In this document: positions 25,318-37,380 of the stretch, piece by piece
Numbering within the stretch: position 1 is the first letter of the stretch
Layout: each line of letters begins with the position of its first letter
NCBI RefSeq assembly: GCF_947487805.1
Contig: NZ_CANKXW010000002.1
Location: 62,001 to 126,000, forward strand
Reading direction: 5' to 3'
DNA length: 64,000 nucleotides
DNA from: an uncultured Tateyamaria sp.
GTDB taxonomy: Bacteria; Pseudomonadota; Alphaproteobacteria; Rhodobacterales; Rhodobacteraceae
Program-made: the position numbers and the translations under genes
Notes under the pieces: model-generated
Told to the model about the DNA's origin: nothing
The model's database searches: none
What the model saw: the letters and a program-made list of their open reading frames with translations, nothing else

Positions 25318-25407
25318 GGAGAGGTGCCGGAGTGGTCGAACGGGGCGGTCTCGAAAACCGTTGTGGGTGCAAGCCCACCCAGGGTTCGAATCCCTGTCTC
25401 TCCGCCA
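25318..25407 (+). tRNA. tRNA-Ser (CGA)
   Basis: A 90-base cloverleaf with encoded CCA. The acceptor pairs GGAGAGG with TCTCTCC (last pair G-T), the anticodon loop is CTCGAAA giving anticodon CGA, there is a long variable arm (GTGGGTGCAAGCCCAC) typical of serine tRNAs, and the T-arm is AGGGTTCGAATCCCT. Its 3' 14 bases are duplicated at 37888-37901, marking it as an integration site. Confidence 0.97.
25394..25407 (+). other. attachment-site core, tRNA end (attL)
   Basis: CTGTCTCTCCGCCA, the last 14 bases of tRNA-Ser(CGA), recurs without mismatch at 37888-37901 in the same orientation. A truncated tyrosine integrase begins about 85 bases downstream, the standard layout of a tRNA-integrated island. 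Confidence 0.65.
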
Positions 25408-25492
25408 TTTTCGGCTCTAGACGACCATTCCCAACATACTGATAGTAGAACGTAATTCGGCGTTTTCGCGCTTATGTCGGTCCTTAGTCCGC

Positions 25493-26233
25493 TTGATTTG
25501 CTGCACAAACGGTGGGTTCTCCGCCATAAGCATTGCCAAACGAGGCCGTCTCTACCACCTCCGCCGCCGCGTCCCGCGCCGGTATCGGGGTATCGAGCCG
25601 CGCGAAACTGTCTGGATCAGCCTGCACACCGACTCGGAGACAGTCGCCCCCAGCAAGGCGGATCGGGCGTGGAGCCAGATGATCGAGGCCTGGGAGGCGC
25701 GGCTGGCCGGGAACAGTGAAGATCCAGAGGCCCGCTACGAAGCCGCGCGAGACCTCGCCCGGGAGCGTGGGTTTCGGTATCTGGATGCGGGGGTTGTGGC
25801 CAAGCTGCCGATCGAGGATGTAATTGAGCGCGTCGAGGCCATTCCTGCGCCTGCGAACCAGCCCGATGCGGTAGAGGCCGCGGCCCTTCTCGGCACCGCC
25901 CCGGAACCCCGGATGTCGATCACCAAGGCACTGGAGCTCTCCTGGGGCCTCGCCAAGGAAAAGACCCTCGGCAAGAGCGAGGACCAGCTGCGCCGTTGGG
26001 AAGCGCCGCGCAAGAAGGCGGTGAAGAACTTCGTCGCGGTCGTCGGCGACAAGGAAATCGCCAACATCACCCGCGACGACATGCTGGACTTCCGCCGGCA
26101 CTGGCTCGACCGGATCGAGGCGGGTGACGTCACGGCAAACTCGGCCAAAAAGGATCTGATTCACCTCGGCGAGGCGACGAGTCCGAGCATCAAGAGTTGG
26201 TATCTTGCGCCCAACAATGGGAGCGCAAGATAA
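25493..26233 (+). pseudogene. truncated tyrosine-type integrase (N-terminal part only)
   Basis: The readable 246 residues match the N-terminal half of Rhodobacteraceae phage-type integrases: the DUF6538-like start KRGRLYHLRRRVPRRYRGIEPRETVWISLHTDS, a long linker, and the SAM-like core-binding domain KEIANITRDDMLDFRRHWLDRIEAGDVTANSAKKDLIHLGE. Homology stops there and about 20 unrelated residues lead to a stop. The entire catalytic domain with R-H-R-Y is missing. It is thus a deletion remnant and cannot recombine. It lies directly downstream of tRNA-Ser. The true start is uncertain because the region before KRGRLYH is not family-like. Confidence 0.8.
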
Positions 26234-26552: not shown

Positions 26553-27389
26553 TCAGTGAAAGCTAGCTTGAAAGCTGGTCGCCGTGAGCGACACATGCGC
26601 ATCAAGCGGTGGGCGCAACTCAAAACCCTTGGGCGTTCGTGCGAAGTTCCAAAGGCGAAACAAGCACCATTCCTCGCGCCGTTCATCTGCCACTGCAAGT
26701 TCATTGCGCGAGACATGGAACGGCGTGCGTTCCCACCCGTTTGTGGTCTTCACCTCGATGAGACGCTGCCGTCCGTCAGCATCGAAACTGGCAATATCAT
26801 AGCCCGCGCCATCCCCTTCTTCTTCGGAAACCCAGCGGATTTGTTGCGCCAAGTCCTCCCGCCCTGCTGCAGTCAGAGTGTTACGCTCGTGTTTCAAGAC
26901 GCGCTCTTCTCCAGCCTTGCCAAGGGCGCGGTTGCGTTCATCCCGCGCGGCCACGTCGAACTTCTTGGCGATGTGGCGCATCTGCTCAAGCTCGTCCGGC
27001 GGCGGTTGGTTGGTCAACGTCGGTGCAGGCCCGACCCAGAGTTGCGCCGCCTCGGCCATGCCATCAACGGGCCGGGAAGAGAGGGTGCGGTGCGTCCAGC
27101 CGGGGTTAATAGCCAGCCATCGTGCGACGGCGTCGATCAAGCTGGTCTGGAAATTGAAGGCCGGTTTGTACCCGGTGATCCAAATCTTGCCGAGGCCCTT
27201 GAGAACGGCACTGATGTTCTGATGTTTGAACTCGACCGATCCGTCCGAGCGGTCGTTCAGGCGCGGTAGAAGCTGCCGCCGATGGGCAGCCTTGTTGTAG
27301 GGACGGCCCGCCACATCGTCAGCCAGCATCGCGAAGTAATCCGCGACGATCAGATCATTTTCAGTATCTGTCCACGCTTGGCTCGACAT
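26553..27389 (-). CDS. DUF3883 domain-containing protein, nuclease-like
   Basis: A 278-residue protein. The N-terminal part (1-110) is helical (MSSQAWTDTENDLIVADYFAMLADDVAGRPYNK.. IWITGYKPAFNFQTSLIDAV) and resembles the N-terminal region that accompanies HNH/restriction-like modules. The C-terminal part is DUF3883: a glutamate (GKAGEERVL, E161) then GYDIASFDADGRQRLIEVKTT with D198 and E212-x-K214, a PD-(D/E)xK-type pattern. Such domains occur in restriction systems and other defence genes. No methylase or helicase partner is present, so it stands alone. Location inside a tRNA island supports a defence role; activity is inference. Confidence 0.72.
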   Translation of the reverse strand: MSSQAWTDTENDLIVADYFAMLADDVAGRPYNKAAHRRQLLPRLNDRSDGSVEFKHQNISAVLKGLGKIWITGYKPAFNFQTSLIDAVARWLAINPGWTHRTLSSRPVDGMAEAAQLWVGPAPTLTNQPPPDELEQMRHIAKKFDVAARDERNRALGKAGEERVLKHERNTLTAAGREDLAQQIRWVSEEEGDGAGYDIASFDADGRQRLIEVKTTNGWERTPFHVSRNELAVADERREEWCLFRLWNFARTPKGFELRPPLDAHVSLTATSFQASFH

Positions 27390-27803: not shown

Positions 27804-28721
27804 ATGACTGCCATGAACCAATCGTCACTCGGCACTGACGGGCACCGGTTCGGTGTCCTGTTTGTCTTTGGCGCTGGCGTGCTTTGGTCGACCGTCGGGC
27901 TTGGAATACGGCTGATCGAAGACGCAGTTGTGTGGCAGATATTGCTTTACCGTTCGGTCAGCCTGTCACTTCTACTGTACGTGTTCATTCGCATGCGGTC
28001 CGGAGAAAGCCCCTTTGCCCAGATACGCCGCACGGGATTTCCAGCGGTGATCGCGGGGCTGTCGCTCGTTGCTGCCTATTCCGGCGGGATATACGCGATC
28101 CAGTCGACGTCCGTGGCAAACGCCATGCTTTTGTTTGCAACAGCACCCTTCATGGCGGCAGTTCTGGGGTGGATTGTCCTGCGTGAACCTGTACGCCTTG
28201 CCACCTGGGTGGCGATCGCCGTTGCCATTGCCGGTATCGCGATCATGGTCGCAGATAAATCCGGAGGCGTTGCCTTGACGGGCAGTCTTGCGGCTTTGGG
28301 GTCCGCCTTTGGGTTTGCGGTCTTCACCGTGGCGCTTCGGTGGGGGAAATCAGGTGAAATGCTGCCGTCGGTTTTTCTGTCCGGAATATTCGGCATCATC
28401 GTGACATCCGGCATATGTCTGTTTTTGGAATTGTCTCTGGTGTTGTCGGTCCGGGATGGCGGCATTGCAATGGGCATGGGGGTGTTTCAGGTCGGCGCAG
28501 GGTTGATCCTGTATACTCTGGGGTCTCGCAGCCTTCCCGCTGCGGAACTTGCGCTGTTGTCACTGGCTGAAGTTCTGCTTGGTCCTCTATGGGTCTGGTT
28601 GTTTATCGGCGAAACGGCCACGCTGAACACATTGTCTGGAGGCGCAGTTTTGCTTGCGGCCATCGCTGGAAACGCGCTGTCAGGCAAGCGACGCAAGCCG
28701 CCGCCGATCACCTCACCATAG
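27804..28721 (+). CDS. EamA/DMT family transporter
   Basis: A 305-residue inner-membrane protein with about ten hydrophobic segments in two EamA repeats (residues about 17-150 and 160-290). The pattern GVLWSTVGLGIRL..YRSVSLSLLLYVFIRMR and the mid-protein ALLSLAEVLLGPLWVWLFIGE are typical of drug/metabolite exporters. The ATG at 27804 has GGAG six bases upstream. Substrate unknown. The gene lies inside the tRNA island and points toward the phosphonate-lipid candidates, from which it is separated by about 530 non-coding bases. Confidence 0.85.
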   Translation: MTAMNQSSLGTDGHRFGVLFVFGAGVLWSTVGLGIRLIEDAVVWQILLYRSVSLSLLLYVFIRMRSGESPFAQIRRTGFPAVIAGLSLVAAYSGGIYAIQSTSVANAMLLFATAPFMAAVLGWIVLREPVRLATWVAIAVAIAGIAIMVADKSGGVALTGSLAALGSAFGFAVFTVALRWGKSGEMLPSVFLSGIFGIIVTSGICLFLELSLVLSVRDGGIAMGMGVFQVGAGLILYTLGSRSLPAAELALLSLAEVLLGPLWVWLFIGETATLNTLSGGAVLLAAIAGNALSGKRRKPPPITSP

Positions 28722-29257
28722 GGGATCGGGGACAACTCATTTCTGATGGAGCTGCCGTGGGTGGGTGCGTTGCATGTGTGATCCGATCCATGTGCGCATG
28801 ATACGTGTTGCTTTTGCGCGGCTTTAGCCCTACGGCTTTATTTCTGGATCGCTAATACGCCGTGAGACAATATTTTTTCGGCCAATCTTGATCGCTCACC
28901 TTCTCGTCCAGCGTTGACCCAAGCATTTGCACCCGGGCGACGCTGGTCAGATGACGATAAATTGGCCGCATAGCTGACGACCATTTCTGTTCGACCCTAC
29001 GATACCGTTGCCAAGATGCTGCCAAGCAGCACCTGTCGCGCTTCTGGTCCGCTTACATTTACAGGATCAGATTTCCCAAATTTTCCATACCCGTTCAATT
29101 TTCGGACGACACAACAACCGCCCCCTGATCGGGCTGTGTTTTCGAACTCGATTTGTGCCCTCTCGACGTCTCTGCGCGGTTCGCGCTCAGAGGCACATCA
29201 TGGGCGTACCGGCGTTGCAACCAAGGGGTTGCAGCGTCGTTGGAGCATGGCCTGAAT
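28722..29257 (+). other. non-coding stretch before the transaminase fusion gene
   Basis: No complete gene is supported. On the minus strand an open frame ending at 28852 reads RYRRVEQKWSSAMRPIYRHL.. without any start codon; it could be a decayed 3' gene fragment. The rest looks like promoter and debris sequence. Confidence 0.35.
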
Positions 29258-31219
29258 TTGGATAAACATCTGCTTTTCACCCCCGGCCCTGTGAATGTGG
29301 CCGAGACCCTGCATACCGCGATTTGCAAAGAGGATATCTGCCATCGGGAAACTGATTTTGATGCCCTTCTTGCAGGTATTGAGCACAAATTACTCTCCCT
29401 TTTTCAGATAAGAAAAAGAGGACGCTACCGCGCGGTGGTGATCACCGGCTCCGGGACAGCGGCGAATGAGGCGATACTGTCCTCGGTGGTCGGAGATGGT
29501 GCCATTTTGATCCTGTCGAACGGAGAGTTTGGCGGGCGACTGCACAAGACATCGGTGATCCATGACAAGAAGGCCCATCTGATCGAAATGCCTTGGGGCA
29601 CCGCCTTCGATGTACCGGAAATCGCAACTTACCTTGCAAAACATAAGATCAACCTAGTGGCCATGGTCCACCATCAGACCTGTTCGGGAATGTTGAATCC
29701 GCCGGCGCAGATCGGGGCCCTGGCAAAAGCCAGCGGCGCACTCTTTGTGGTGGATGGGGTCAGCTCGGTTGGCACCGAGGTGATCGACATGGAGGCGTGT
29801 CATATCGCTTTTGTGTCCAGTTCCAGCTCCAAGGCCTTGGGCTCCTATCCCGGCCTGTCTTTTGTCGTGGGGCTCAAGAAACAGTTCAAACGGCTCAAAC
29901 ACCACGCAGCCAAGACCACTTACCTGAATCTCGCAACGTTCTACGCATTCCTCAAGACCCACAGTCAGACGCCAAACACACCGGCCGTACCGTTGTTTTT
30001 TGCATTGAACCAAGCGCTCACGGACATACTGAGCGAGGGCGTCCTTAAGCGACATGCCCGCATCAAGGCGCGGGCTGATCTGCTGCGGAACGGCATGCGC
30101 AGGCTCAATCTCGACTTTTTGGTTGATGAGGCGGACATGTGTTCGATGCTGACGACGGTGCACATTCCAGCATCGGTATCTGTGCATGATCTGCGTGCCC
30201 GTCTGCGTGAAAAGTCCATCATCATCTACGAAGGAAAGGGATGCTTTGCGGGCAAGGTTTTTCAGGTCGGTAATTTCGGGGAGCTTGCGGATGGCGACAT
30301 CCTGTACTTCCTGTCGACCCTCAAGGACGTGTTGCTGACGCTTCAAGCGGATGCGGCAGACCTTGTCACTCCGGTCAGGCTGACGCGCGCGCCCTGCCCT
30401 GTTGCCTGTGCCAGTGCCAGTGCCGGTGCCCGCGCGTGTGCGGGTAGTGTCATGAACGATATGCTGACACGCCTGTGGGCGACCAAGACCCGCGATGACG
30501 AATGGTGGTCGTCTTTTGTCACGGCACCGATCGCCATCGTTGCCAATTGTGGCGTTGTCGACATCGCTTGGATCACGCCCAACCGGATCACAGCGGCGTC
30601 GTTCCTTGTGGCCATCGCGGCAACCGTTGCAATTCTGATCGGAGGGACCGCGTATTTCATCGCGGCGGCCATCCTGATCCATGTCAGCCATATCCTTGAT
30701 TGCATGGACGGTCAGTTGGCACGCTACAGAATGGTTTCGTCCCCCGTCGGCAGTTATTACGACCGTATCACGGATCAGGTACAGGTCACGTTATGGTTCG
30801 GGGCGGCAGGCTTTGCTGCATTTGCGCAGACAAACAGCGTCACGCCGGTGTTTCTGTCGCTGCTCGGCATCGCGTTCTATGGCTTGCGCGGATACGCCAA
30901 ATACGTGGCACTGGAGATCGAAACGGGACGCAACCCGGATTATCCTGCTCAGATCGCGCAAATGAAACAGGTACAGACCACCTCAGGACCAGGGTTTGGT
31001 CTAAAGGCAAATCTAGTCTGGTTCCGGCGAGAACAAAGCAAGGTGCTCGCCTTTGATGAAGGCGTCTTCATCTTCATGCTCTCTGCGGCGCTGATCTTTG
31101 ATCAACTCATTCCGATGCTTTGGGTGTTTGCGGCAAGCCAGGTGTTCTTGGGCCTCTACAAATCATGGCTTCGCGGAAAAAACATCGACGAAAATCTGAG
31201 GGTTCCAACGCAAAAATAG
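29258..31219 (+). CDS. fusion: 2-aminoethylphosphonate transaminase-type domain + CDP-alcohol phosphatidyltransferase
   Basis: About 653 residues with two enzymes in one chain. Residues 1-365 are a PLP aminotransferase of the PhnW/AEP:pyruvate transaminase family: LLFTPGPVNV, ICHRETDFDALL, VITGSGTAANEAIL, VVDGVSSVG (D166) and the PLP lysine SSSSSKALGSYPG (K192). An Ala/Cys-rich linker (about 370-398) leads to a membrane domain with about six helices and a perfect CDP-alcohol phosphatidyltransferase motif: D481-x2-D484-G-x2-A-R-x8-G498-x3-D502-x3-D506. The start is uncertain: TTG at 29258, CTG at 29252 (GGAG upstream) or a far TTG at 29153. With the next gene, a CTP-type nucleotidyltransferase, it suggests synthesis and membrane transfer of an aminophosphonate head group. 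No PEP mutase or decarboxylase is in the window. Confidence 0.8.
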   Translation: MDKHLLFTPGPVNVAETLHTAICKEDICHRETDFDALLAGIEHKLLSLFQIRKRGRYRAVVITGSGTAANEAILSSVVGDGAILILSNGEFGGRLHKTSVIHDKKAHLIEMPWGTAFDVPEIATYLAKHKINLVAMVHHQTCSGMLNPPAQIGALAKASGALFVVDGVSSVGTEVIDMEACHIAFVSSSSSKALGSYPGLSFVVGLKKQFKRLKHHAAKTTYLNLATFYAFLKTHSQTPNTPAVPLFFALNQALTDILSEGVLKRHARIKARADLLRNGMRRLNLDFLVDEADMCSMLTTVHIPASVSVHDLRARLREKSIIIYEGKGCFAGKVFQVGNFGELADGDILYFLSTLKDVLLTLQADAADLVTPVRLTRAPCPVACASASAGARACAGSVMNDMLTRLWATKTRDDEWWSSFVTAPIAIVANCGVVDIAWITPNRITAASFLVAIAATVAILIGGTAYFIAAAILIHVSHILDCMDGQLARYRMVSSPVGSYYDRITDQVQVTLWFGAAGFAAFAQTNSVTPVFLSLLGIAFYGLRGYAKYVALEIETGRNPDYPAQIAQMKQVQTTSGPGFGLKANLVWFRREQSKVLAFDEGVFIFMLSAALIFDQLIPMLWVFAASQVFLGLYKSWLRGKNIDENLRVPTQK

Positions 31220-31255
31220 CCCGCTTCGACGCGGCTCATTCAGGATTGAAGCATA

Positions 31256-32083
31256 ATGAAATACGAAAAACACCGTGCACCGGTTGCCGTCATTCTGGCC
31301 GCTGGCATTGGCTCGCGCCTCAGCCCACTGACCGACAGTTGCCCCAAAAGCCTGCTGACTGTGGGCGGATCGATCATCCTTGAACGCATGATCCGCAATT
31401 GCCTGAGCTGCGGAATGTCGCAATTCGTTCTGGTTCTGGGTCACCGGGCTGATGAGATTGAGAAATTTGTAGACAAGGCATTTCGCGGCATCCGTGTCAC
31501 CTATGTGATCAACGACCGATACCGCGAGACGAACACAGGCTACTCCCTGATGCTGGCGGCCAAAGCGATTGGCACAGCTGAGTTTGTCAAATTCGATGCG
31601 GACGTCGTGTTTGATGTCAAAATCCTGCGCCAGCTTTTGGACAGCGACCACGCAAACGTCTTGTGCATTGACCGCAACATCGCGCTTGAGGACGAAGAAG
31701 TTAAGGTCATCGCAGACGAACAGATGCAGGTCCTTGAAGTTGGCAAGTCCGTCGATCCGAAGCGCGCGTTGGGTGAATCAATCGGCATTGAGAAGATCAG
31801 CGCCGGTACGGGTGCACTGCTGTTCGCAGAGCTTTCAGAAATGATGGAGAGCCGTGGAAACCTTCAGGCGTATTACGAGGCGGCTTACGCGCAATTGGTC
31901 GACAAAGGTACGCAGTTCCATGCTCTTGATATCAGCGGCCTGGACTGGACGGAGATCGACACAGCCGAAGACTTTGTCGCTGCAAATGCGATGTTCAGCA
32001 GCCCTGTCACTACCATATCCCGTGGCCAGCAAAAGGTGCTGGACGAGGCTGTGGAAGAAGCGGCCATTCAGACGCACGTCTGA
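31256..32083 (+). CDS. NTP transferase, phosphocholine/phosphonate cytidylyltransferase-like (LicC/PntC type)
   Basis: A 275-residue nucleotidyltransferase. The signature AVILAAGIGSRLSPLTDSCPKSLL (G17-x-G-S-R21..P30-K31) binds the NTP, VKFDADVVFD carries the metal-binding aspartates, and DWTEIDTAEDF closes the active site as in LicC. LicC-type enzymes couple CTP to phosphocholine, and relatives (PntC) activate 2-aminoethylphosphonate to CMP-AEP. It starts 36 bases after the transaminase-phosphatidyltransferase fusion on the same strand, so an operon making CMP-aminoalkylphosphonate for lipid transfer is the simplest reading. A sugar-1-phosphate substrate is the alternative. Confidence 0.78.
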   Translation: MKYEKHRAPVAVILAAGIGSRLSPLTDSCPKSLLTVGGSIILERMIRNCLSCGMSQFVLVLGHRADEIEKFVDKAFRGIRVTYVINDRYRETNTGYSLMLAAKAIGTAEFVKFDADVVFDVKILRQLLDSDHANVLCIDRNIALEDEEVKVIADEQMQVLEVGKSVDPKRALGESIGIEKISAGTGALLFAELSEMMESRGNLQAYYEAAYAQLVDKGTQFHALDISGLDWTEIDTAEDFVAANAMFSSPVTTISRGQQKVLDEAVEEAAIQTHV

Positions 32084-32183
32084 TGCATCTACTGCCCTGC
32101 GCCGCAATTCCGGCGCGCGGTGTACGGCGCAGTGAAGCCCTTGCCATCCCGGCACAGGATCGCTGCATTTGAAAGGACCTCTC

Positions 32184-32321
32184 ATGGCCAAAGGCAACAA
32201 CAGCAAACGTGGCAACAAAGAAGCCAAAAAACCCAAGCAAGAGAAACCAAAGGTTTCTGCGACGGCCAATTCTCTGGCTGGAAAACCCGCGCTCGCAATT
32301 GGCGGCAAAAAGGTAAAGTAG
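32184..32321 (+). CDS. small basic protein of unknown function (45 aa)
   Basis: MAKGNNSKRGNKEAKKPKQ.. then a Lys/Ala/Gly-rich tail ending GGKKVK; 45 residues, strongly positively charged and probably disordered. A good AAGGA ribosome site lies seven bases before the ATG. Small proteins with this look (MAKG..RGNKEAKKPK) recur in Rhodobacteraceae, but no function is known to me. RNA or nucleoid binding is only a guess from the charge. Confidence 0.65.
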   Translation: MAKGNNSKRGNKEAKKPKQEKPKVSATANSLAGKPALAIGGKKVK

Positions 32322-32440
32322 CCGGAACGTTTCGGATTTCGTCCGTCTGAGGTATTCAGCTTGCTTTAGTTGCGCACCTTGGCACGGGCGGCGTCCGAGA
32401 CTTGTCCCAAAACGCCTATAATTTAGATTTGGAAGACCCA

Positions 32441-32716
32441 ATGAGCGAAACAGAAGAGTCCGGCACAAAGATTCACTATATCTGCCAGACATATATTGCC
32501 AAGACGACTGCGCGGGGGCAGCAAGGCCCCCTGAAAATCGACAAGCAGTTGCAGTATTCTACGCCCCGTGAAGCTGAAGAGCGGGCAGAACGGGAATTTC
32601 GCGCGGAAAATTGCGTCGGTGCCGATGCCTATATGGTGGTTGAAGACAGCAGTAGCGGCGAAGTAGGAGACCCTACATTTTTAGTGAGACTTGGGTCTGT
32701 TCCTGAGCAGGATTGA
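32441..32716 (+). CDS. hypothetical small acidic protein (91 aa)
   Basis: MSETEESGTKIHYICQTYIA.. 91 residues, acidic, no signal peptide or transmembrane segment. The N-terminal part looks like a beta-hairpin (IHYICQTYIAKTTARG); the middle helix is charged (STPREAEERAEREFRAENC). The ATG at 32441 follows GGAAG; an in-frame start at 32402 is less likely. It ends just before the convergent groL terminator. I do not recognise a family. Confidence 0.6.
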   Translation: MSETEESGTKIHYICQTYIAKTTARGQQGPLKIDKQLQYSTPREAEERAEREFRAENCVGADAYMVVEDSSSGEVGDPTFLVRLGSVPEQD

Positions 32717-32741
32717 CTTCAAAACCGCGCGTGCATTGAAG

Positions 32742-32779
32742 AACAAAAGTTGGCCCACAGGCATTTGCCTGCGGGCCAG
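32742..32779 (-). terminator. intrinsic terminator of groESL
   Basis: On the minus strand TGGCCC-G-CAGGC-AAAT-GCCTG-T-GGGCCA (one internal mismatch) is followed by CTTTTGTT. It lies 12 bases after the groL stop and may also serve the convergent small gene. Confidence 0.8.
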
Positions 32780-32790
32780 TGGTTCGCGAT

Positions 32791-34458
<1,668 letters not shown>

Positions 34459-34468
34459 TCAGCGTCGT

Positions 34469-34756
34469 TCAGGCCATAATGCCCAAGATGTCGCTCTCCT
34501 TCATGATCATGAGGTCTTCACCGTCAATCTTGATCTCTGTACCGGACCACTTGCCGAACAAAATCTTATCGCCAGCTTTGACGTCCATTGCGATACGCGC
34601 GCCAGCATCGTCCTTTGCACCTGCGCCAACAGATACCACTTCGCCTTCTTGTGGTTTTTCCTTGGCGGTATCGGGAATGATCAGACCGCCTGATGTCTTT
34701 TCGTCACTTTCAATGCGACGAACCAGAACGCGGTCGTGGAGTGGGGTAAACAACAT
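34469..34756 (-). CDS. groS: co-chaperonin GroES
   Basis: A 95-residue lid protein: [44 protein letters not shown] with the mobile-loop segment ([13 protein letters not shown]) intact. The ATG at 34756 gives the normal family length; a reading from 34774 adds six residues. First gene of the groSL operon, about 55 bases downstream of a CIRCE element. Confidence 0.97.
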
Positions 34757-34809
34757 AGATATGCTGCCTTTCAAGATTTACGGGGGTGGATGGCGTGCGT
34801 AGGGACACA

Positions 34810-34836
34810 TTGGCACTCGCCACACCTGAGTGCCAA
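34810..34836 (-). promoter_or_regulatory. CIRCE operator (HrcA site)
   Basis: TTGGCACTC-N9-GAGTGCCAA, a perfect 9-bp inverted repeat matching the CIRCE consensus (TTAGCACTC-N9-GAGTGCTAA) with a symmetric pair of changes. It lies 54 bases before the groS start, implying heat-dependent HrcA repression of groESL. Confidence 0.93.
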
Positions 34837-35111
34837 TACGACTGAGATGGCTATCGTTGAGGTCGGCTACAATAGACTAGTCGTAAATATTTTAGGGCCT
34901 AGTACAGAGTTGGACGCGCCCGACCATTGATCTCTGCAGCCGCTCCAGGCCGCCGTCACCTCATCAGCCGCCAGCAATCTCTTTCCACTTAAAGAGCAGG
35001 GTACTGCTTTGGATTTAGGTCGTATTCCCGCGCTTTGGTCGAAAATGGATAAGCATGGCGTGCAAAATGACCTGCATTGTCGAGTACAATTCAGGACAAG
35101 GGGCTTAGCAG
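34837..35111 (+). other. AT-rich divergent promoter region
   Basis: No gene is seen between the groESL regulatory region and the oxygenase. The sequence is visibly AT-richer than the core genome (for example AATATTTTAGGGCC). Confidence 0.35.
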
Positions 35112-35660
35112 GTGAACGTACATTCTATTGACGATGGATTTACGCCTGCCGAATGCAGCGCAATCGTCAACGCCATGGCATCAGCTCCAGCGAGAGAAGC
35201 TTTGCTTGTCGGCCAGAACCGGGATCATAATCTGCGCCGCGCCAAGCTCGTTTGGCTGGATGAGATCGACGGCATGGCGTGGGTCATGGAGCGACTTATC
35301 GACGTTGTGAGAACCTCAAACCGAAACTGGTTCGACTTTGATCTCAGAGAATTTGCCGAGAGCCCACAGGTTGCCAGCTACGATGCCACGGATGGCGGTC
35401 ATTTTACATGGCATTCCGACATCGGTGATGGCCCAATGGCACAAAAACGAAAACTGACATTGGTCGCGCAGCTTTCCAAGCCCGGAAGCTATGATGGCGG
35501 TGATCTGGAAGTTATGCCGGGCGCGCACATTATCGCGGCAAACCGGACGCAGGGGTCTATCACTATTTTCCCAAGTTTTCATCTGCATCAAGTGACGCCT
35601 GTGTCACGAGGCACCCGACATTCTTTAACCGTCTGGGCGCACGGCCCTAAGTTTCGGTAG
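35112..35660 (+). CDS. 2-oxoglutarate/Fe(II)-dependent oxygenase family protein (PKHD-type)
   Basis: A 182-residue double-stranded beta-helix oxygenase. The iron triad is H101-x-D103 (FTWHSDIG) and H159 (FHLHQVTPV), with R169 (GTRHSL) to bind 2-oxoglutarate. It resembles the prolyl 4-hydroxylase-like PiuC/Fe-uptake family and a viral oxygenase group. It starts at GTG. Substrate unknown; it lies beside rpsU within the island. Confidence 0.82.
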   Translation: MNVHSIDDGFTPAECSAIVNAMASAPAREALLVGQNRDHNLRRAKLVWLDEIDGMAWVMERLIDVVRTSNRNWFDFDLREFAESPQVASYDATDGGHFTWHSDIGDGPMAQKRKLTLVAQLSKPGSYDGGDLEVMPGAHIIAANRTQGSITIFPSFHLHQVTPVSRGTRHSLTVWAHGPKFR

Positions 35661-35676
35661 ATAGAAGAACGTAGAG

Positions 35677-35877
35677 TTACGTTTCGCGTTCCAGTTTTTT
35701 CCGCGCCAGTTTGCGGGCACGGCGGATTGCTTCAGCTTTTTCCCGGGCCTTTTTCTCAGAGGGTTTTTCGAAATGTTGCTTCAGCTTCATTTGCTGGAAA
35801 ACACCTTCGCTCTGGAGCTTCTTTTTCAAAACTCTGAGTGCTTGATCGACGTTGTTGTCGCGAACACTGACCTGCAT
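35677..35877 (-). CDS. rpsU: 30S ribosomal protein S21
   Basis: A 66-residue basic S21: [50 protein letters not shown]. Complete length for the alphaproteobacterial type. S21 aids mRNA start selection. Roseobacters often carry more than one S21; this copy sits in the predicted island tail and is convergent with the oxygenase gene. Confidence 0.95.
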
Positions 35878-36126
35878 TTGGTTTCTCTACCTTGGAAGAC
35901 TTACCTGAATGAGAGTTCCTAGAACCCCCGCCTTGTTAAGTAATTTTGGTGTCGTCCACATTCCGACATCAGCGTTCAGCCGCCCACGCTCCTCTTGAAC
36001 CCAACATCTTAAGCCGAAGGGTGCGGTCACTCTGGCACTGGCTATCAAATACGCGCGGCAGACCAACGCATAGGCCATTGTGCCGATACACCGCTATGGC
36101 GAATAGGGGTCAGCTGGAGACTGGCC

Positions 36127-37380
36127 TCAGGTCTCGGGAAAAGGTACCTGCCGCTCTACTTGCAATGGTGGAACAGGCTTCAAACGATTTTCGCCCAGAC
36201 GCGGATGCAGCCGCCCGGCAATGCCCCAGGCCAGCAGGCTTGCCGCTCCGGCGGCGGCAAAAATGCCGGATATCGGTGCCACCAAAAGGATCAGCCAGGC
36301 CACACCCGGTGTCAGGATGCCGGACACATCCCGATAGGATGAGTAGACTGCCGACATTTCGGTGCGTTCCGATGGTTTGACGGCCATCAGGAACGGCAAT
36401 CCGGCACAAATGTCCAAAAGGATCAGAAAGAAACTGCCGACAAAGAGAACAAATACTGTTGCAGACGGGGCTGCTGAAACCAAGCTGGCGGTACAGAACA
36501 GACATGCGAAAGCCATGAAGCCGGTTTGAACCGAGCTGCGCACGGAGTGTTTCTGCATCCATCTCAGCATCACCGGCGACAAAAATAATCCAGCATTTGT
36601 GATGGACAAGAGCGTCCCGCCCAGCGTTTCTCCAAGGCCATTCTCAACAGCGAAGATGGGCAGATAAACAACATAGGCCCACCACCCGCAGGAGCGGATC
36701 ACCGCAAATAGCCAACCTGCGATCAGGCGGGGTTGTTGTAAGAAACGCCCCAGAAATGCCAACGGATTAACTGGTGCATGCTGCGCCCGGGTAATCAGTT
36801 TGCCATTCCCCAGCCGTAGAAAGATGAACACGCCCAGCATGGTTGCAGCGGCCACGCCGGAAATCACGAATGGAGCGGGCCGCCACCATTCCCACAAAAG
36901 TACGCCCAGCATGGGGCCAACGGTCCATCCAAGGGCCGAATAGAACATGCGCAGCGTTTCGCATTTTCCGAGATCAATCCGGGAGATGTAATCCAGCACA
37001 TAGGCGTTGAAACACACAAAGGTGACGACAGTGGCCAGCGAGTTTAAAACAAGCCCCAGAACGACCATCTCCGGGGACCCCAGAGCTGCGAGGCCCGATC
37101 CGACAATGAATCCCGTCGCCCCGATGCCGTACATCCACCGCCTCGCTATCCAGCGATTGAGAAAGGGAACGAGAAGCCCAGTCAGCAATGAGATGATCCC
37201 GATCAAGAAATAAACTGAACTGATCAGGGCCGCGTCCTGAAGCGCGTCGTACATCGCGATCGGAAAGACGGAAATCAGGATGCCGCGTGCAACCGCCTCA
37301 AACGCAGCCAAGGTCGCGAAACCCTGCACAGATGGTGCAGGCGCGTGTCGCAGCCATTCGGGGATTCGACGCTCAAACAT
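36127..37380 (-). CDS. MFS transporter
   Basis: A 417-residue inner-membrane protein with about 12 hydrophobic segments in two six-helix halves. It opens with a cytoplasmic MFERRIPEWLRHAPAPSVQGFATLAAFEAVARG and the A-motif-like loop RWIARRWMYGIGATGF between helices 2 and 3. The central region (LLWEWWRPAPFVI) and C-terminal loop (VKPSERTEMSAVYSSYRDVSGI) are MFS-like. Substrate not predictable. It lies inside the predicted island next to its right end. Confidence 0.82.
   Translation of the reverse strand: MFERRIPEWLRHAPAPSVQGFATLAAFEAVARGILISVFPIAMYDALQDAALISSVYFLIGIISLLTGLLVPFLNRWIARRWMYGIGATGFIVGSGLAALGSPEMVVLGLVLNSLATVVTFVCFNAYVLDYISRIDLGKCETLRMFYSALGWTVGPMLGVLLWEWWRPAPFVISGVAAATMLGVFIFLRLGNGKLITRAQHAPVNPLAFLGRFLQQPRLIAGWLFAVIRSCGWWAYVVYLPIFAVENGLGETLGGTLLSITNAGLFLSPVMLRWMQKHSVRSSVQTGFMAFACLFCTASLVSAAPSATVFVLFVGSFFLILLDICAGLPFLMAVKPSERTEMSAVYSSYRDVSGILTPGVAWLILLVAPISGIFAAAGAASLLAWGIAGRLHPRLGENRLKPVPPLQVERQVPFPET

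What the first reader, a model, noticed from the sequence alone, without database searches (positions are those of the whole stretch)
29258..32083. Phosphonate-lipid module: AEP transaminase-CDP-alcohol phosphatidyltransferase fusion with adjacent cytidylyltransferase
Seen: one 653-residue protein joins a PhnW-type transaminase (PLP Lys192) to a complete CDP-alcohol phosphatidyltransferase (DxxDGxxAR..GxxxDxxxD), and the next gene is a LicC/PntC-like nucleotidyltransferase. Known: PntC activates 2-aminoethylphosphonate as the CMP ester, and CDP-alcohol phosphatidyltransferases move such head groups onto lipid. Inference: the pair could make a CMP-aminoethylphosphonate and transfer it to diacylglycerol, giving a phosphonolipid. 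The fusion order transaminase-then-membrane transferase is unusual to me. The missing PEP mutase means precursor must come from elsewhere in the genome or be scavenged.
Basis: partly seen in the sequence, partly recalled or inferred. Interest (0 to 1): 0.78.

Follow-up and report, generated by a model that had tools for sequence, protein, structure and literature searches.

The report
PEP-mutase-free CDP-aminoalcohol gene module
Three neighbouring genes look like a small assembly line that makes an amino head group, activates it with CTP and hands it to a lipid-type acceptor, but the evidence points away from the suspected carbon-phosphorus lipid, and the apparent gene fusion is a local reading-frame accident.

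Summary
Genes real, fusion not conserved, phosphonate reading weakened. Window 29258-31219 encodes a PhnW-like class V aminotransferase (AT) read in frame into a CDP-alcohol phosphotransferase (CDP-AP); 31256-32083 encodes a LicC/PntC-like nucleotidyltransferase (NTase). In 0 of 61 relatives do both domains lie in one ORF; 34 of 61 overlap by exactly 4 nt. The window's single ORF stems from a +1 (mod 3) length change in a GTGCC-rich tract. All three genes occur in 57 of 68 related loci from several phyla. PEP mutase passes its cut-off in 3 of 50 module genomes versus 18 of 398 phylum genomes (p 0.72), never beside the module, and is absent from the window's genome. The module AT clade has Gln (55 of 55) where 28 of 28 other class V ATs and 7 of 7 PEP-mutase-locus ATs have Arg. 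Nine of 68 loci carry a P-loop kinase beside the module, which suits a phosphate ester. Best reading: an uncharacterised Kennedy-type CDP-amino-alcohol pathway, head group and acceptor unknown. This AT copy also has E140Q and may be decaying. Scavenged aminoethylphosphonate is not excluded: the genome has phosphonate-binding proteins and two PhnI-PhnJ loci.

The parts
29258..30451 (+). class V aminotransferase part (AT), PhnW/AepZ superfamily, module-specific clade; TTG start, another in-frame TTG at 29240
   Evidence: start context
30405..30451 (+). GTGCC-rich variable tract (about 30405-30425) and rest of the junction, where a net +1 (mod 3) length change merges the two frames
30452..31219 (+). 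CDP-alcohol phosphotransferase (CDP-AP), 255 aa from ATG 30452, a separate gene in relatives; helical membrane-protein-like model
31256..32083 (+). LicC/PntC-like MobA-type nucleotidyltransferase (NTase), 275 aa; D116, E208, E233 and D235 in 39 of 39 rows
27804..28721 (+). EamA/DMT transporter upstream; clustered neighbour in 7 of 68 loci and present on the SK012 plasmid; membership unproven

Best explanation
The three genes are a PEP-mutase-independent, Kennedy-type module. The class V aminotransferase makes a small amino alcohol or amino-alcohol phosphate from an aldehyde or ketone; in some lineages a dedicated kinase phosphorylates it. The NTase couples the phosphate to CTP to give a CDP-amino alcohol, and the membrane CDP-AP transfers the phospho-amino-alcohol to a lipid or other alcohol acceptor. 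Shown: the domains, their conserved catalytic residues, the recurring gene set, no enrichment of PEP mutase, the Arg-to-Gln change and the kinase partner. Inferred: every reaction, the order of steps, CTP as the nucleotide, the phosphate-ester nature of the head group and the lipid acceptor. The in-frame fusion is a window-specific frame merge, and the AT copy in this strain may be losing function.
For: All three genes in 57 of 68 loci, in order AT-CDP-AP-NTase (48) or AT-NTase-CDP-AP (9). PEP mutase over cut-off in 3 of 50 module genomes vs 18 of 398 phylum genomes, p 0.72, none beside the module. Gln336 in 55 of 55 module ATs vs Arg in 28 of 28 other class V ATs (one per locus L003-L030), 7 of 7 PEP-mutase-locus ATs, 9 of 9 group-2 ATs and 3 of 3 references. 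AT clade separate at 100/99 support. A PRK/uridine-kinase-like kinase in 9 of 68 loci, in both AT groups, and strong matches (E below 1e-15) in just those 9 of 46 module genomes. NTase position 114 is Asp in 31 of 31 group-1 rows; it aligns with PntC E104 and, taking a 20-residue tag offset, with LicC D105. The plasmid copy is annotated as a phosphocholine cytidylyltransferase family protein.
Against: No substrate, product or lipid is shown. NTase and AT are nearest to phosphonate enzymes: 6pd2 is the best fold match, TIGR03301 the best AT model, and on the midpoint-rooted tree the AT clade's neighbour is the PhnW/PntC clade, with long branches flagged by the program. R30 (54 of 54 with a residue there) and K327 (55 of 55) remain and could hold a phosphonate. 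In group 2, NTase position 114 is Asn (8 of 8) and the AT keeps Arg336, so the two groups may not make the same thing. The kinase is absent from 37 of 46 module genomes at the strong level, the window's included. The nearest CDP-AP folds are AF2299, DIPPS and PIPS, ahead of CHPT1/CEPT1, so transfer from a CDP-head group to diacylglycerol is not shown.
Confidence: 0.58

Rival explanations
1. One reading: the NTase makes CMP-2-aminoethylphosphonate from scavenged 2-AEP and the CDP-AP moves it to diacylglycerol, giving a phosphonolipid; the AT interconverts 2-AEP and phosphonoacetaldehyde.
For: AT and NTase resemble PntC-AEPT; Nostoc and Burkholderia phosphonate clusters combine a CDP-alcohol phosphatidyltransferase, NTP transferase and AEPT with pepM and ppd (PMC5987646 Fig. 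7 legend); the window's genome has five phosphonate-binding proteins over cut-off and two PhnI-PhnJ loci.
Against: No PEP mutase enrichment; Arg336 lost in the whole AT clade; an AT adds little if 2-AEP itself is imported (inference); a kinase partner has no place in a phosphonate route (inference); the CDP-AP is remote from those near PEP mutase.
Confidence: 0.2
2. The module makes phosphatidylethanolamine (PE) and stands in for phosphatidylserine decarboxylase, which the window's genome lacks.
For: No PF02666 in the window's genome; its two other PF01066 proteins are PgsA (over cut-off) and a phosphatidylcholine-synthase-like protein, so no CDP-AP-type phosphatidylserine synthase was seen; a Lentibacter algarum genome (B3M08, G300) has the module and no PF02666, and PE is listed for L. 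algarum ZXM100 (PMC10608839 table); PE without psd is a printed puzzle in Thalassobius (PMC5770400 passage).
Against: No association: PF02666 in 5 of 14 module Rhodobacteraceae vs 128 of 295 family genomes, p 0.78; 25 of 29 other module genomes have it; the four Thalassobius species named in that passage are not among the record titles (they may be absent from the collection or renamed).
Confidence: 0.1
3. The CDP-AP joins the CDP-head group to a soluble alcohol, giving a phosphodiester solute or surface group as in di-myo-inositol-phosphate synthesis, rather than a membrane lipid.
For: NTase and CDP-AP together resemble the two halves of IPCT-DIPPS: 4mnd is matched by both models.
Against: Scores to the DIPPS model NF041135 are far below its 580 cut-off: 40.5 bits for the CDP-AP part and 76.2 for the NTase; an aminotransferase has no role in that pathway (recalled).
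Confidence: 0.12
4. The window copy is a decaying remnant: the AT is damaged and no head group is made in this strain. This is compatible with any of the functions above.
For: Frame merge at the junction; four changes at AT columns where no other row deviates, the most of any of 55 rows, including E140Q, a position that is Glu in 54 of 55 module ATs and 28 of 28 controls.
Against: Lys192, Asp166 and the CDP-AP and NTase motifs are intact; NTase and CDP-AP carry no such unique change.
Confidence: 0.3

Closest known systems
Pnt phosphonyl-tailoring pathway, PntC-AEPT of Treponema denticola (PDB 6pd1/6pd2; Rice et al. 2019, PMC6697681, sections 6 and 8 and passages read)
   Same: LicC-like cytidylyltransferase and PhnW-like transaminase together; best fold match of the NTase
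   Different: PntC genes there are tied to PEP mutase, which is not enriched here; Gln336 for Arg; Asp114 for Glu104; a CDP-AP accompanies the pair, and a kinase in 9 of 68 loci
Phosphonate cluster of Nostoc cyanobionts and Burkholderia (PMC5987646, Fig. 7 legend and passages read)
   Same: CDP-alcohol phosphatidyltransferase + NTP transferase + AEPT
   Different: That cluster includes pepM and ppd; in three comparable PEP-mutase neighbourhoods read here (L151-L153) the CDP-AP scores 49-52 bits to the module profile
Eukaryotic Kennedy pathway and bacterial LicC phosphocholine activation
   Same: kinase, CTP cytidylyltransferase and CDP-alcohol phosphotransferase logic
   Different: An aminotransferase is part of the module; the CDP-AP fold match to CHPT1/CEPT1 is weaker than to AF2299/DIPPS
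RtxA N-terminal domain, dihydroxyacetone phosphate aminotransferase (PMC3222319, passages read)
   Same: aminotransferase making an amino-alcohol phosphate (serinol phosphate) from a phosphorylated carbonyl
   Different: Sequence not compared here; RtxA feeds rhizobitoxine; its class V membership is recalled

Membership tests
Phosphonate biosynthesis (Ppm/Pnt) cluster | PEP mutase in the cluster or genome | tested here: not met
   PF13714 0 matches in the window's genome; TIGR02320 over cut-off in 3 of 50 module genomes; motif scan of ORFs over 180 aa in L031-L102 gave one hit, in L058, whose sequence opens like an ABC ATPase
AEP transaminase (PhnW/AepZ) | score above TIGR03301 or TIGR02326 cut-off | tested here: not met
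   266.7 of 360.8 and 187.5 of 400.8 bits; L063 AT 297.9 of 360.8
AEP transaminase (PhnW/AepZ) | conserved Arg (PhnW Arg340; number and role recalled) for the anionic group | tested here: not met
   Gln in 55 of 55; Arg in 28 of 28 controls and 7 of 7 PEP-mutase-locus ATs
AEP transaminase (PhnW/AepZ) | 2-AEP / phosphonoacetaldehyde activity | not testable with these tools
   no assay
Class V PLP aminotransferase | PLP Lys and Asp | tested here: met
   K192 and D166 in 55 of 55
CDP-alcohol phosphotransferase (PF01066) | D1xxD2G1xxAR..G2xxxD3xxxD4 motif and helical fold | tested here: met
LicC/PntC-type cytidylyltransferase | NTP_transf_3 fold with conserved acids | tested here: met
   PF12804 3.4e-12; D116, E233, D235 in 39 of 39 rows; fold matches 6pd2, 4jd0, 1jyk
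LicC/PntC-type cytidylyltransferase | CTP and substrate specificity | not testable with these tools
   D114 is the LicC-type Asp rather than the PntC Glu; suggestive only
Kennedy-type CDP-head-group pathway | dedicated kinase for the head group | tested here: inconclusive
   beside the module in 9 of 68 loci; no match in the window's genome at 1e-6
Kennedy-type CDP-head-group pathway | transfer to diacylglycerol | not testable with these tools
   fold nearest AF2299/DIPPS

The most novel reading that the evidence does not exclude
An undescribed bacterial CDP-amino-alcohol pathway, spread over several phyla, in which an aminotransferase clade that gave up the family's substrate-binding Arg makes a neutral or cationic amino alcohol (serinol phosphate or a like compound), which NTase and CDP-AP mount on lipid as a head group that may be among the unidentified aminolipids and phospholipids of roseobacters.
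Probability: 0.35. Interest if true: 0.75.

Novelty: new variant of a known kind. Interest (0 to 1): 0.5.

Why it matters
Roseobacter descriptions list unidentified aminolipids and phospholipids (PMC10608839 table), and some Thalassobius species are reported to hold PE without the known genes (PMC5770400 passage). A recurring three-gene module with a clear chemical logic but no assigned product gives a direct genetic handle on one such head group. It also warns that PhnW-like plus PntC-like genes do not by themselves mean phosphonate synthesis.

Tried and rejected
Fusion as an adaptive trait: rejected, 0 of 61 relatives, with the L033 caveat given above. PE replacement: rejected as the general function. 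A first test with TIGR00163 was uninformative: it passed the cut-off in 11 of 43 genomes, none of the 14 Rhodobacteraceae, so the broader PF02666 was used. Kinase elsewhere in the window's genome: none at E 1e-6. Module frequency in the family: of 295 genomes, G000 and G261 have close matches to P0001, the next best being 30% identical. Listings of the paper searches showed no description of this module; one search was for serinol phosphate. Rhodobacteraceae and phylum labels rest on record titles; the window's own family name is not told by the tools. Rows dropped: group 2 was left out of all three sets, and L033, L061, L063, L065, L075 and L083 out of the CDP-AP set. Of the 7 PEP-mutase-locus ATs, one (L159:12027-13211) is a class V AT unlike the AEP transaminases; the other six lie with PhnW and PntC.
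Full report
What is there. The frame at 29258-31219 (+) encodes 653 residues: a class V aminotransferase (PF00266, 3.5e-21) followed by a CDP-alcohol phosphotransferase (PF01066, 7.8e-13). The next gene, 31256-32083, is a MobA-like nucleotidyltransferase (PF12804, 3.4e-12). PLP Lys192 and Asp166 are intact, and so is the CDP-AP motif. The AEP-transaminase models are matched below their cut-offs (TIGR03301 266.7 of 360.8 bits). PDB neighbours are PhnW 1m32 and PntC-AEPT 6pd1 for the AT, and 6pd1, LicC 1jyk and IPCT 2xme for the NTase.

The fusion. A scan of genome contigs gave 72 loci, L031-L102. In the 61 loci of L031-L098 where both AT and CDP-AP could be read, their best ORFs are never the same; in 34 they overlap by exactly 4 nt. 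In the junction alignment, eight of nine relatives end the AT at a TGA overlapping the ATG of the CDP-AP gene. The ninth, MAG locus L033, has a one-base change there, reads about 30 residues into the CDP-AP frame and then shifts again. In the window a GTGCC-rich tract is longer by 16 or 10 nt than in relatives, +1 (mod 3), which merges the frames. The other family genome with a close match (G261, locus L002) has two genes, and Sulfitobacter sp. SK012 plasmid unnamed3 has two annotated genes. So the merge is a strain-level or assembly-level event at an indel-prone tract. The window's AT also carries four changes at columns where no other row deviates (N103D, T106A, E140Q, I340F), the most of any of 55 rows, while the NTase and CDP-AP carry none.

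The module. Fifty-seven of 68 loci hold all three genes, 48 in the order AT-CDP-AP-NTase and 9 as AT-NTase-CDP-AP; several of the rest are cut by contig ends. By record title they come from roseobacters, other Alpha- and Gammaproteobacteria, Bacteroidota, Planctomycetota, Verrucomicrobiota, KSB1, Neomarinimicrobiota and others; many are MAGs, so some assignments may be wrong. Group 1 (55 ATs with the window) and group 2 (9 ATs, 27-29% identical to the window) share a CDP-AP about 48-59% identical to the window's. In L061, L063, L065 and L075 the CDP-AP is divergent, 28-29%, and in L090, L091 and L093 two CDP-AP genes stand in tandem.

Is it a phosphonate module? The window's genome has no PF13714 match. 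TIGR02320 reaches its cut-off in 3 of 50 module genomes and in 18 of 398 phylum genomes, Fisher p 0.72. The three PEP mutase genes (L103-L105) are not beside the module: the first is on its module's scaffold about 1 Mb away, the second on another contig, and the third is not on the 4707-base module contig L087. No relative of the window proteins at 1e-5 was found in those short PEP-mutase loci. As a control I read 20 PEP-mutase neighbourhoods: those of G655, G589 and G583 do hold an AT, NTase and CDP-AP, but their CDP-APs score 49-52 bits against the module profile, and that near HTCC2083's PEP mutase (L167) 54. The AT tree puts the 55 group-1 ATs on one side of a branch (100/99), next to PhnW, PntC and six PEP-mutase-locus ATs; it is midpoint-rooted and has long branches. 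Column 336 is Gln in 55 of 55 group-1 ATs, Arg in 9 of 9 group-2 ATs, 7 of 7 PEP-mutase-locus ATs and 3 of 3 references, and Arg in 28 of 28 other class V ATs from the window's family, one per locus L003-L030. That this Arg binds the phosphonate or carboxylate in PhnW and AGT is recalled, not read. R30 and K327 remain, so an anion is not excluded.

Against my reading: the window's genome can probably import and break down phosphonates. Five PF12974 genes pass the cut-off, and two loci (L120, L121) hold PhnI and PhnJ (PF06007 1.7e-115 and 2e-143; PF05861 8e-110 and 6.3e-165). Scavenged 2-AEP as the head group therefore stays possible. The NTase's best fold match is also PntC.

The kinase. A PRK/uridine-kinase-like P-loop kinase (PF00485 9.9e-10, 7.8e-06 and 1.4e-07 in three members) stands beside the module in 9 of 68 loci: L072 and L074 (both cut by a contig or locus end), L076, L077, L078, L092, L094, L095 and L097. 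Searched as a profile (A3, built from five of them) in 46 module genomes, it matches strongly (E below 1e-15) in the genomes of just those nine loci; two other genomes have weak matches (4.2e-10, 4.8e-09) and 35 have none at 1e-6, the window's included. A kinase beside both AT groups suits a phosphate-ester head group and is hard to place in a phosphonate route (inference).

NTase and CDP-AP details. PntC holds the amine of AEP near Glu104 and Glu196, LicC has Asp105 and Asp192 there (PMC6697681, section 8). By the alignment, window D114 lies at PntC E104 and, if the LicC chain carries a 20-residue tag, at LicC D105; it is Asp in 31 of 31 group-1 rows and Asn in 8 of 8 group-2 rows. The second position was not aligned. 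The NTase model (pLDDT 91.9) matches 6pd2 (TMq 0.77), 4jd0 and 1jyk. The CDP-AP model (pLDDT 86.8) matches AF2299 (TMq 0.65-0.69), DIPPS and PIPS ahead of CHPT1 and CEPT1, so the acceptor is open.

PE replacement, tested and not supported. The window's genome lacks PF02666; its other two PF01066 proteins are PgsA (135.2 of 109.1 bits) and a phosphatidylcholine-synthase-like protein (247.9 of 350 bits). But PF02666 occurs in 5 of 14 module Rhodobacteraceae and 128 of 295 family genomes, p 0.78, and in 25 of 29 other module genomes. PE without psd is a printed puzzle for Thalassobius (PMC5770400, passages). Lentibacter algarum is listed with PE (PMC10608839, table; strain ZXM100), and the L. algarum B3M08 genome has the module and no PF02666.

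Verdict. A real, recurring, uncharacterised three-gene CDP-head-group module; fusion a local frame merge; phosphonate reading weakened but not excluded; head group and acceptor unknown. The candidate I favour is serinol phosphate or another amino-alcohol phosphate, by analogy with RtxA, which turns DHAP into serinol phosphate (PMC3222319, passages).

Noticed in passing
27804-37380; L172 (NZ_CP025806.1 71783-90547): The block DMT transporter - module - groEL/groES - 2OG oxygenase - MFS is repeated on plasmid unnamed3 of Sulfitobacter sp. SK012, so the module can travel with an accessory groESL.
   Followed up: partly
32791-34425: The groEL beside the module is one of two copies; the other at G000:C1:821069-822703 is 79% identical.
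   Followed up: yes
25318-26233: tRNA-Ser(cga) followed by a DUF6538 frame (integrase N-terminus by recall), an island-like edge.
   Followed up: no
family genomes: 167 of 295 genomes of the window's family have no PF02666 match although PE is reported in roseobacters; how those make PE is open.
   Followed up: partly
L120 and L121 (G000 contigs C6 and C10): Two loci with PhnI and PhnJ, i.e. two C-P lyase-type operons, beside ABC transporter genes.
   Followed up: partly
L033:10031-12746: A MAG locus with its own frame disturbances at the AT/CDP-AP junction and in the CDP-AP and NTase genes.
   Followed up: no
26553-27389: Protein with a NOV_C (Protein NO VEIN, C-terminal) domain, 7.1e-24.
   Followed up: no
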